64,000 nt of DNA from Pseudomonas sp. B21-048 (GTDB lineage Bacteria > Pseudomonadota > Gammaproteobacteria > Pseudomonadales > Pseudomonadaceae). This document shows positions 35,864 through 42,100 of this stretch, one piece after another. Location: positions 248,001-312,000 of the forward strand of contig NZ_CP087168.1 of NCBI RefSeq assembly GCF_024748615.1, in the 5' to 3' direction. Position numbers and translations under genes: made by a program. The notes below the pieces were generated by a model. It made no database searches and had not been told where the DNA came from. It saw only the letters and a list, made by a program, of their open reading frames with translations. Numbering within the stretch: position 1 is the first letter of the stretch; each line of letters starts with the position of its first letter.

Positions 35864-36068
35864 TGGGGGCGCGGAAAACGACCTCGGTACATTGATCACT
35901 TTTGTTCGGAAAAATACCCAAAGTTGCTGTTTTTACTCGTAAAAAATCGGATTAAAGCAACTTCATGCCGCGTTTCAAGCAACGCTTGATATGCCTGAAA
36001 TTCTTTCTCATGGGCCGCAAAACCCGCACCCACTAGATTAGGCCGCTAAATGGAATGGAGACCTGGTA

Positions 36069-36815
36069 ATGATCGTGTTGAACAAAGAAGTTGGCGAATC
36101 GCTACGACGCGACAAATATGTCAACGTCCAGGGAGCCGACTTCAATCTCTTCGGTCATTTTTCCGACTTTGTCAGATTGACTAAAAGTTGGGAAAGCATG
36201 GAGCCGGACAGCTATTACGGCCAGGCCGATGCGGGCATGCGTTTCCGTCGTTACAGCGATTTCGAATACAACCCGGTCAGCCGTGAACTGAAGCAGCTGG
36301 AACACCGCGCCTACGTGCAATCGAAGGCCAACAACAGCTACGTCGGCGGGCTGGAGCGGCACTTCCAGGATTTCTCCAATGAAGTCATCAATTCGCCGGT
36401 GATGCGCAGCCTCATCGATGCGGATTTCGAGGTGTACAAAAACGTATTGCCGCCGGAGTTGCACGATGAAATCTGGCAGTGCCAGATCCATCAGATCCGC
36501 ATCGAAATCAAGCCGGGCAAGCAACTGGAAATCACCCCGGAAGGTATTCATTGCGACGGTTATCCGTTCAGCGGTGTGCATTTCTGGGGCCGCAACAACG
36601 TGGAGGGGGCGGAAAGCCGGTTGTATTCGGCTGAAGAGGAACAGTTGGCGGCGACGACTTATCTGGAAATCCTCGACACCACCTACTTCCTCGATCGCGA
36701 CATGCGTCACTACGTGACAGCGGCACGCAATACCCACGCTCACGAAATGGCCTATCGGCAGATTCTGGCCATTTCCTTCTCGCGGCCCGGGACCGCTTTC
36801 GACATTGTTCGCTGA
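36069..36815 (+). CDS. 2OG-Fe(II) dioxygenase, amino-acid hydroxylase type (PF10014-like)
   Basis: 248 residues. The facial-triad motif H161-C-D163 (GIHCDGYPFSGVHFWGRNN) and a distal histidine H223 or H225 (ARNTHAHEMAYRQILAISF) are present. QLEHRAYVQSKANNSYVGG and QIRIEIKPGK fit the 2OG-Fe_Oxy_2 family, whose members hydroxylate free L-isoleucine, L-leucine or similar amino acids. It is the first gene of an operon with a GNAT and AzlCD. The upstream region has an inverted repeat (AAGTTGCT at 35921 / AGCAACTT at 35956). Confidence 0.82.
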   Translation: MIVLNKEVGESLRRDKYVNVQGADFNLFGHFSDFVRLTKSWESMEPDSYYGQADAGMRFRRYSDFEYNPVSRELKQLEHRAYVQSKANNSYVGGLERHFQDFSNEVINSPVMRSLIDADFEVYKNVLPPELHDEIWQCQIHQIRIEIKPGKQLEITPEGIHCDGYPFSGVHFWGRNNVEGAESRLYSAEEEQLAATTYLEILDTTYFLDRDMRHYVTAARNTHAHEMAYRQILAISFSRPGTAFDIVR

Positions 36816-36828
36816 ACAGCTAGACCCC

Positions 36829-37275
36829 ATGATGCACATCGCCGAGTGCCCTGCACCGGTGATGCTGCAGCGTGCAACAGCCAAGGAAGCGCAACGTCTG
36901 GAGCGCTTCTTTCGGCAATTCGACGAAGTGTCATTCTGTGAATGGCAAGACGCCAAATGTTTGCGCGGTGTGTTGGAGCAGAAAACCACCACCGCGTTTC
37001 TCGCGCTCGATGTCTGTGGCGAAGTGGTCGGCGCGGTGTTGGGCGGAATGCTCGGCAGCCGTGGCACCATCAATCACTTGGCGGTGAGCCCGGTGTATCG
37101 CAGCCAGGGGGTCGGTCAGCGCTTGGTGGAAGCGGCATCGGCGGACATGAAAAGGGTCGGTGTGCTGCGGATGTTCCTGTTCGTTGACGATGCCAACCTC
37201 GCCGGCAAACGTTTTTGGAGTGCCCAGGGCTTTTGTGAGCCGCGCGGCGAAACGACCTTTGAGAGGGACTTATGA
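36829..37275 (+). CDS. GNAT-family N-acetyltransferase
   Basis: 148 residues from tandem ATG codons at 36829. The acetyl-CoA-binding motif SPVYRSQGVGQRLVEAASAD (motif A, R/QxxGxG/A) is intact, and SAQGFCEPRGETTFERDL closes the fold. It follows the dioxygenase by 13 bases and overlaps azlC by 4, so it belongs to the same operon. It may acetylate a small amine, perhaps the hydroxylated amino acid (inference). Confidence 0.82.
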   Translation: MMHIAECPAPVMLQRATAKEAQRLERFFRQFDEVSFCEWQDAKCLRGVLEQKTTTAFLALDVCGEVVGAVLGGMLGSRGTINHLAVSPVYRSQGVGQRLVEAASADMKRVGVLRMFLFVDDANLAGKRFWSAQGFCEPRGETTFERDL

Positions 37276-37988
37276 ATGAGACGTCCAGCAGCCAACCGCT
37301 GATGGTCGAACCCCAGCCCTCGCGCACGTTCGCTGAAGCCAGCCCGGTGATTGCGGGCTACTTCACGGTGGCGTTTGTGTTCGGTCTGATGGCCGTCAAT
37401 GCCGGATTGCCCGTGTGGCTGCCGGTCGCGATGTGCCTGTTCGTCTACGCCGGCGCTTCACAGTTCGCCGCCCTGGCGCTGATTTCCAGCGGTGCGTCGC
37501 TGACGACCATCATCCTCACCACGTTTTTGATCAACGCGCGGCACATGCTGATGTCGGTCTACATGGCCAAGGCCTTGCAGGCGATGGGCCTCAGTCGTCT
37601 GGAGCGCTGGTGTTATGCCGGCGGGCTGACCGACGAATCGTTCGCCTTCCACAGCGTCAAACTGGGCAAGGGCATACCGGTCAATGTGCGTTACCTGATC
37701 GGCTTCAATCTGTATTGCCACACCTCGTGGGTGCTGGGCGGTTTGCTGGGGGCGATCTGCGCACAGTACGCGGCGCACCTGATCAAGTATCAGCTCGACT
37801 ATGCGCTGACCGCGATGATGCTCTACGTGCTGGTATCGCTGTGCAACACCCGTAACAAACTGATCGCCGCACTGGCCGCGGTTGCCTGCATGGGTGCCCT
37901 GAGCCTGATCGGCAGCTCACCCTTCAACGTGTTCATTGCCACATTCGTGGGCTGCGGGGTGGGTGTATGCCTGACCAAACGTTCCTGA
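37272..37988 (+). CDS. azlC: AzlC-family branched-chain amino acid exporter subunit
   Basis: 238 residues with several membrane segments and the AzlC signatures FVYAGASQFAALALISSG and NARHMLMSVYMAKAL, plus DESFAFHS. With AzlD it exports branched-chain amino acids or analogues. The start overlaps the GNAT stop as ATGA. Confidence 0.92.
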   Translation: MNETSSSQPLMVEPQPSRTFAEASPVIAGYFTVAFVFGLMAVNAGLPVWLPVAMCLFVYAGASQFAALALISSGASLTTIILTTFLINARHMLMSVYMAKALQAMGLSRLERWCYAGGLTDESFAFHSVKLGKGIPVNVRYLIGFNLYCHTSWVLGGLLGAICAQYAAHLIKYQLDYALTAMMLYVLVSLCNTRNKLIAALAAVACMGALSLIGSSPFNVFIATFVGCGVGVCLTKRS

Positions 37989-38287
37989 TCCTCGTCGTCG
38001 CGCTGATGATGGCCGTCACATTCCTGCCGCGCGCGTTGCCGCTGCAGGTGAACACCGACCATTGGCCACCCCTGGTCGCCCGGGCGCTGGAATACCTGCC
38101 GGTGGCGATCGTCGCTGCAATCAGTCTCACGCCGCTGTTGATCAAGGATCAGCAGGTGCAACTTGATCGCCCGGAATTTTATGCAGCCATTCCGACGTTG
38201 TTATGTGCGTATTTCAGCAAAAATCTCTTTCTCAGCGTAGCGGTGGGAACGGCTGCGTACATCGCGCTCGGGTCGTTCATGCAGTGA
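37967..38287 (+). CDS. azlD: AzlD-family small exporter subunit
   Basis: 106 residues, hydrophobic, with TFLPRALPLQ and a central P/R motif typical of AzlD. It overlaps azlC by 22 bases and its 3' end overlaps the convergent LysR gene by 87 bases. Confidence 0.9.
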   Translation: MPDQTFLILVVALMMAVTFLPRALPLQVNTDHWPPLVARALEYLPVAIVAAISLTPLLIKDQQVQLDRPEFYAAIPTLLCAYFSKNLFLSVAVGTAAYIALGSFMQ

Positions 38288-41353: not shown

Positions 41354-41389
41354 TTGATCACTTTTTAAAATTTCCAGTTGAGGTTCATC

Positions 41390-42100
41390 ATGAGCAATTC
41401 GAAAAAAGTCATCGTTATTACTGGCGCCTCCCAAGGTCTCGGCGCAGGCATGGTCAAGGCCTTCCGTGATCTCGATTACAAGATTGTCGCGACTTCACGC
41501 TCGATCCAGCCGTCCACCGATCCGGACATCCACACCGTGGCGGGCGACATCGGCGACCCGGCGATCGCCCAGCAAGTCATTCGTGAAGCCATCGCGCGTT
41601 TTGGTCGCATCGACACACTGGTCAACAACGCCGGTATCTTCGTTGCAAAGCCGTTCACCGCTTATACCCCTGAAGATTATGCGGCGGTGCTGTCGGTAAA
41701 CCTGAATGGCTTCTTCTATATCACCCAACTCGCAATCACCGAGATGGAAAAACAGGGCAAAGGACACATCGTCAACATCACCACCAGCCTGGTGGACCAT
41801 GCCATCGACGGTGTGCCGTCGGTACTGGCGTCGTTGACCAAGGGTGGTTTGAACGCTGCGACCAAGTCACTGGCCATTGAGTATGCCAAGCGTGGGATTC
41901 GGGTGAATGCGGTTTCCCCCGGCATCATCAAGACCCCGATGCACGGCGAGGAAACTCACGAAGCGCTGGGGAGTTTGCATCCGGTTGGGCGCATGGGGGA
42001 GATCAGCGATATTGCTCAGGCTGTGGTGTATCTGGACAGTGCCAACTTTGTCACCGGCGAAATCTTGCATGTTGATGGTGGGCAGAGTGCGGGTCACTGA
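41390..42100 (+). CDS. SDR-family oxidoreductase
   Basis: 236 residues from the ATG at 41390, GAGG upstream. NAD(P)-binding TGASQGLGAGM at the N-terminus, NNAG motif (LVNNAGIFVAKPF). The active-site position where SDRs usually have YxxxK reads LASLTKGGLNAATKS, so the tyrosine is replaced although K is present. Substrate unknown. The missing Tyr may mean reduced activity or an altered role. Confidence 0.85.
   Translation: MSNSKKVIVITGASQGLGAGMVKAFRDLDYKIVATSRSIQPSTDPDIHTVAGDIGDPAIAQQVIREAIARFGRIDTLVNNAGIFVAKPFTAYTPEDYAAVLSVNLNGFFYITQLAITEMEKQGKGHIVNITTSLVDHAIDGVPSVLASLTKGGLNAATKSLAIEYAKRGIRVNAVSPGIIKTPMHGEETHEALGSLHPVGRMGEISDIAQAVVYLDSANFVTGEILHVDGGQSAGH

What the first reader, a model, noticed from the sequence alone, without database searches (positions are those of the whole stretch)
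36069..38287. Amino-acid hydroxylase, acetyltransferase and AzlCD exporter in one operon
A PF10014-like 2OG-Fe(II) hydroxylase (H161-x-D163, distal H223/H225), a GNAT and both AzlCD subunits are tightly packed: 13-base gap, then 4- and 22-base overlaps. PF10014 members hydroxylate free branched-chain amino acids, and AzlCD exports them. The order suggests a modify-acetylate-export module for a hydroxy-amino acid, possibly a secreted metabolite or detoxification route. A convergent LysR gene may sense the substrate. I do not know of a description of this combination with the GNAT.
Basis: partly seen in the sequence, partly recalled or inferred. Interest (0 to 1): 0.72.

Follow-up and report, generated by a model that had tools for sequence, protein, structure and literature searches.

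The report
Amino-acid oxidation and export operon
A conserved five-gene Pseudomonas unit appears to oxidise a free amino acid, probably acetylate it and pump it out under its own regulator; the compound is unknown, so this is a new version of a known kind of operon.

Summary
The operon is real and correctly placed: PF10014 Fe(II)/2OG oxygenase, GNAT, AzlC, AzlD, then a convergent LysR gene. Oxygenase orthologs (63% identity or more) and their AzlC partners (52% or more) occur in the same 45 of 199 Pseudomonas genomes. All five genes are in 80 of 80 named Pseudomonas loci. In a divergent lineage LysR sits upstream and divergent, yet is still the only close LysR match, and a LysR-type dyad plus a -10-like element keep their positions before the oxygenase.

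Corrections: the distal iron His is H214, not H223/H225. The GNAT probably starts at TTG 36805, overlapping the oxygenase by 11 bases, so there is no 13-base gap. Branched-chain hydroxylation cannot be assumed: the enzyme is a clade of its own, and its best solved match is titled HrmJ, not isoleucine dioxygenase.

PF10014 + LysR + amino-acid exporter operons are published. AzlCD, the ever-present GNAT and the separate oxygenase clade are the new elements. Best reading: a regulated make-and-export unit for a modified amino acid, substrate unknown.

The parts
35975..35989 (+). 15-bp dyad TCAAGC-N3-GCTTGA, candidate LysR recognition site, starting 94 bases before the oxygenase ATG; conserved sequence runs on to about 36000 (likely second LysR contact)
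   Evidence: best-scoring position at the same distance in the 80% relative and in 7 of 7 divergent loci; 0-18 of 1000 shuffles reach the score; only exact match in the genome.
36034..36039 (+). -10-like element TAGATT, 35 bases before the ATG
   Evidence: TAGATT or TAAATT at -35 to -38 in 8 of 8 loci of the two divergent groups.
36069..36815 (+). PF10014 Fe(II)/2OG-dependent oxygenase, 248 aa; iron ligands H161, D163, H214; R230 probable 2OG ligand
36805..37275 (+).
37272..37988 (+). AzlC exporter subunit, 238 aa
37967..38287 (+). AzlD exporter subunit, 106 aa
38201..39127 (-). LysR-type regulator, convergent, probable start ATG 39127; overlaps azlD tail to tail (38201-38287)

Best explanation
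The five genes form one LysR-controlled unit that makes and exports a modified, non-proteinogenic free amino acid. The PF10014 oxygenase oxidises a free amino acid, by hydroxylation or by a hydrogen-abstraction ring closure. AzlCD exports the product. The GNAT acetylates the product or its precursor, most likely on the amino group, as self-protection. LysR binds the dyad 94 bases before the oxygenase and switches the operon on when its cognate amino acid builds up. Shown here: gene content, co-inheritance, purifying selection, intact iron ligands, and an operator conserved in sequence and position. Inferred: the substrate class (from the family), the GNAT target, the export substrate, and activation rather than repression.
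For: Oxygenase and AzlC orthologs share the same 45 of 199 genomes. Five genes in 80 of 80 named loci and in 28 of 28 longer loci, in three genomic settings. LysR is the only match at E 1e-25 in 8 of 8 cassette genomes and absent at that level in 8 of 8 others, although it changes place. Operator and -10 keep their positions. dN well below dS for all five genes in eight comparisons each. Distant PF10014 genes lie next to LysE, EamA, MFS or AzlC exporters in 5 of 12 longer Pseudomonas loci. The published IDO operon couples PF10014 to the RhtA exporter, which is presumed to excrete an antimetabolite (PMC3684760, passages).
Against: No substrate is known and the closest characterised relatives do different chemistry. 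The exporter is not branched-chain specific by model (86 bits against a cut-off of 332 for azlC). The GNAT is the fastest-changing of the five proteins, and its acetyl-CoA loop departs from the usual pattern in the two divergent loci displayed. In 47 distant PF10014 loci no relative of this GNAT was found (many loci have only 1.5 kb flanks). A pure detoxification role fits the anatomy nearly as well.
Confidence: 0.5

Rival explanations
1. Detoxification unit: LysR senses a toxic plant or microbial amino acid taken up from the surroundings; the oxygenase and GNAT inactivate it and AzlCD expels it.
For: Bacillus AzlCD protects against toxic amino acids: 4-azaleucine, histidine, asparagine, diaminopropionate (PMC10882977 and PMC11005379, passages). 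A single operon with its own LysR resembles an inducible response.
Against: The PF10014-related enzymes with known roles in the papers seen act in biosynthesis. Pairing with unrelated exporter families fits product export at least as well.
Confidence: 0.25
2. One reading: hydroxylation of a free branched-chain amino acid, then acetylation, then export.
For: PF10014 includes isoleucine dioxygenase and members acting on Leu, Ile and Thr (PMC3684760, passages); AzlCD has a branched-chain history (recalled; 4-azaleucine).
Against: Isoleucine dioxygenase is among the weakest solved matches (2.7e-6, about 22% identity). HilB scores 22 bits against a cut-off of 350. The acetylation step is inferred from gene order.
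Confidence: 0.13
3. The enzyme is an HrmJ-type ring-forming oxygenase working on a nitro or related lysine-derived amino acid.
For: Closest solved chains by sequence and in the weak fold comparison are titled HrmJ. HrmJ and BelL cyclise 6-nitronorleucine (PMC10764440, passages).
Against: No HrmI-like nitrating enzyme lies in the cassette; four PF14518 proteins are encoded elsewhere in the genome and were not compared with HrmI. 9dqp does not group with the other HrmJ/BelL chains in the tree, and the cassette clade groups firmly with neither. I read no assay of 9dqp.
Confidence: 0.1

Closest known systems
IDO operon of Bacillus thuringiensis and Hil operons of Pantoea, Pseudomonas syringae and others (PMC3684760; abstract and passages)
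   Same: A PF10014 enzyme on free amino acids in one operon with an amino-acid exporter (RhtA in IDO); a LysR gene in the Hil operons
   Different: AzlCD instead of RhtA; a GNAT instead of the reductase and second oxygenase; the oxygenase is a distant clade (IDO 2.7e-6; HilB 22 bits against 350)
HrmJ and BelL oxygenases of hormaomycin and belactosin biosynthesis (PMC10764440; passages)
   Same: Same Pfam-level family; best solved-structure matches; act on a free amino acid
   Different: No HrmI/BelK partner in the cassette; separate clade; exporter and GNAT partners differ
AzlCD exporter of Bacillus subtilis (PMC10882977, PMC11005379; passages)
   Same: Two-subunit AzlC/AzlD exporter under a nearby regulator gene
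   Different: AzlB repressor there, LysR here; scores below the azlC equivalog cut-off; here joined to an oxygenase and a GNAT

Membership tests
PF10014 (2OG-Fe_Oxy_2 / BsmA) | Score above Pfam's gathering cut-off | tested here: met
   168.4 bits against 23.1
PF10014 (2OG-Fe_Oxy_2 / BsmA) | HxD...H iron-binding triad | tested here: met
   H161, D163, H214 in 45 of 45 aligned sequences
PF10014 (2OG-Fe_Oxy_2 / BsmA) | Fe(II)/2OG-dependent activity on a free amino acid | not testable with these tools
   Needs an enzyme assay
HilB / Hil operon | HilB equivalog score | tested here: not met
   22.1 bits against a cut-off of 350
HilB / Hil operon | Core of HilR, HilP, HilA, HilB, HilC (as listed) | tested here: not met
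   A LysR and a PF10014 gene are present; the other cassette genes are GNAT, AzlC and AzlD by Pfam, with no PF13640, PF00497 or PF00106 gene among them. An SDR-like frame at 41378-42100 lies outside and is found in only 22 of 80 named loci.
HrmJ / BelL cyclopropanases | Grouping with HrmJ/BelL in a tree | tested here: inconclusive
   Cassette clade stands alone (100/99); deeper forks are weak
HrmJ / BelL cyclopropanases | HrmI/BelK-type partner gene beside it | tested here: not met
   None in the cassette; the genome's four PF14518 matches are all elsewhere
AzlCD exporter | AzlC and AzlD as adjacent genes above Pfam cut-offs | tested here: met
   130.6 bits (cut-off 32.1) and 73 bits (cut-off 23.7)
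AzlCD exporter | Azaleucine-resistance equivalog TIGR00346 | tested here: not met
   86.1 bits against 332.35
GNAT acetyltransferase | Pfam GNAT domain with RxxGxG acetyl-CoA loop | tested here: met
   51.2 bits against 20.7; loop RSQGVG in the window, altered in the two divergent loci displayed
LysR-type regulator | HTH and substrate domains with a dyad in the target promoter | tested here: met
   PF00126 and PF03466; conserved dyad; binding itself not tested

The most novel reading that the evidence does not exclude
An undescribed Pseudomonas pathway for a new non-proteinogenic amino acid, possibly ring-containing rather than hydroxylated, with built-in resistance by N-acetylation and release through a dedicated AzlCD exporter, used as an antimetabolite or signal.
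Probability: 0.3. Interest if true: 0.7.

Novelty: new variant of a known kind. Interest (0 to 1): 0.45.

Why it matters
If right, many Pseudomonas species carry a compact, self-regulated unit that makes and exports an unknown modified amino acid. That would bear on competition between microbes and on life with plants, and the oxygenase could be a new amino-acid C-H oxidation catalyst. The unit is small enough to express whole in a laboratory strain and identify the product directly.

Tried and rejected
Rejected: H223/H225 as distal ligand. Rejected: the 13-base oxygenase-GNAT gap as the conserved arrangement. Rejected: the SDR-like frame at 41378-42100 as part of the unit, since it is found in 22 of 80 named loci and in none of the 8 loci L032-L039. 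Not found: the cassette outside Pseudomonas. Non-Pseudomonas matches were 24-34% identical among 293 genomes of the order and 26-32% among 398 of the phylum (E at most 1e-15); plasmid matches were below 60%; no phage match. These are samples, and the scan kept 80 of 107 relatives.

Full report
OBSERVATION. The genes are where the finding puts them. Pfam gives PF10014 for 36069-36815, a GNAT for the next frame, AzlC for 37272-37988, AzlD for 37967-38287, and LysR domains for the convergent gene. For all five genes dN is well below dS in each of eight comparisons. Two details need correcting. The distal iron ligand is H214: H161, D163 and H214 are kept in 45 of 45 aligned PF10014 sequences, while positions 223 and 225 are His in 4 of 45 each. 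H223 and H225 are invariant among 28 close relatives but not in the divergent cassette members. R230 is kept in 43 of 45 and is the likely 2OG-binding Arg (inference). The GNAT most likely starts at TTG 36805, overlapping the oxygenase by 11 bases. That TTG is in 80 of 80 named relatives; 34 of 80 have the ATG at +13; 41 of 80 have no other in-frame start up to +36; and the Ile codon that creates the TTG is ATT in 80 of 80, against 311 of 1098 Ile codons elsewhere in the gene. lysR overlaps azlD tail to tail, by 84 bases in 80 of 80 relatives and 87 in the window.

A UNIT. In 199 Pseudomonas genomes the oxygenase query matched 59: 45 at 63-100% identity, and 14 with only distant matches of 31% or less. 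The AzlC query matched 185 of 199, but only 45 at 52% or more, the next best being 36%; comparing handles by eye, these are the same 45 genomes. A scan of one genome for each of 84,980 species kept the best 80 of 107 relatives, all titled Pseudomonas. All 80 have oxygenase, GNAT, AzlC and AzlD in order with LysR convergent. Of 40 longer loci, 28 have an oxygenase of at least 63% and all 28 have all five genes; the other 12 carry distant oxygenases without a match to this GNAT. Twenty-nine of 29 short loci have oxygenase, GNAT and AzlC. These sets overlap. Three settings were seen: AguA within the locus in 77 of 80 named loci, about 1.6 kb from a TrpB-like gene in L032, and about 1.3 kb from mqo in L033.

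REGULATION. In the seven divergent loci LysR lies upstream and divergent. In 8 of 8 cassette genomes tested, the only LysR match at E 1e-25 or better is the one beside the cassette; 8 of 8 genomes without the cassette have none. A 15-bp dyad, TCAAGC-N3-GCTTGA, starts 94 bases before the oxygenase ATG. A profile from 81 main-group sites (window plus 80) has its best match at -97 to -100 in the 80% relative and in 7 of 7 divergent loci; 0 to 18 of 1000 dinucleotide shuffles reach that score. In the divergent loci the perfect dyad itself is often lost. A TAGATT/TAAATT element lies at -35 to -38 in 8 of 8 of these loci. The genome holds one exact match to the extended pattern, plus two with 2-3 mismatches, against one for the reversed control. 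The spacing fits the classic LysR site near -65 (recalled). No second site of that strength lies in the window, so none in front of lysR.

THE OXYGENASE. The best solved match is 9dqp (7.8e-30; 1.6e-34 with a profile), titled HrmJ from Streptomyces sp. Ag109_G2-6; isoleucine dioxygenase is far weaker (2.7e-6). A review says HrmJ and BelL close a cyclopropane on 6-nitronorleucine, made from lysine by HrmI or BelK (PMC10764440, passages). In the tree the cassette enzymes form a supported clade (100/99) on a long branch, and deeper placement is weak; 9dqp does not group with the other HrmJ/BelL chains, so its name may not carry a function. No HrmI-type gene is in the cassette; four PF14518 proteins lie elsewhere in the genome and were not compared with HrmI. 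So a free amino acid is a fair inference; a branched-chain hydroxylase is not.

EXPORTERS RECUR. In 12 longer Pseudomonas loci with distant PF10014 genes, five have an exporter next to the oxygenase: LysE (L041), EamA (L043, and L044 by likeness), MFS (L047) and AzlC (L050); Pfam confirmed four. Two of six plasmid loci opened have an annotated DMT transporter nearby; one of the six carries no annotation. The published IDO operon pairs PF10014 with RhtA, and Hil operons contain a LysR gene (PMC3684760, abstract and passages). The general plan is therefore known. New here are AzlCD in this role, a GNAT present in all cassette loci checked, and the separate oxygenase clade. Bacillus AzlCD exports or gives tolerance to 4-azaleucine, histidine, asparagine and diaminopropionate (PMC10882977 and PMC11005379, passages), so exporter family does not fix the substrate.

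THE GNAT. It evolves fastest: median identity 84.6%, against 87.0 to 96.2% for the other four. An FCxWQ motif in its first half is kept in 12 of 12 aligned sequences, hinting at a specific ligand, while the acetyl-CoA loop is canonical in the window and altered in the two divergent loci displayed. Its nearest solved relatives are named only as putative acetyltransferases. Self-protection by acetylation is my preferred, unproven reading.

VERDICT. A real, conserved, regulated operon, correctly spotted, with two errors of detail and an over-specific substrate claim: a new variant of the known PF10014-plus-exporter operons.

Noticed in passing
L045:4645-8686 (G036) and L046:4650-8648 (G003): A different Pseudomonas cluster: FA desaturase, heme-oxygenase-like diiron protein (best solved match HrmI, 1.4e-35, tested for L045), PF10014, GNAT, ThiF (Pfam on L045; GNAT and ThiF also on L046). 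A candidate HrmI/HrmJ-type nitro or cyclopropyl amino-acid pathway.
   Followed up: partly
L050:5200-6867 (G071): A distant PF10014 gene followed closely by an AzlC gene on the same strand: a second, separate PF10014-AzlC pairing. A small frame after it was not recognised as AzlD by Pfam.
   Followed up: partly
L043, L044, L173, L174: PF10014 genes next to an argininosuccinate-synthase-like gene and a DMT/EamA exporter, in Pseudomonas (L044 by likeness only) and on two rhizobial plasmids.
   Followed up: no
L211 (own genome C1:3516392-3516883): A PF14518 diiron protein beside a frame that looks like dihydrodipicolinate synthase, in the window's own genome; it recalls azomycin (Roh) gene sets, from memory only.
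   Followed up: no
window 38201-38287: Tail-to-tail coding overlap of azlD and lysR, 84 bases in 80 of 80 relatives; a long, length-conserved antisense overlap that may couple the two transcripts.
   Followed up: partly
L040, L042, L047, L071: Other PF10014 genes: L040 beside an SHMT-like gene, L047 beside an ATP-grasp gene (Pfam); L042 and L071 look alike by ORF listing only.
   Followed up: no
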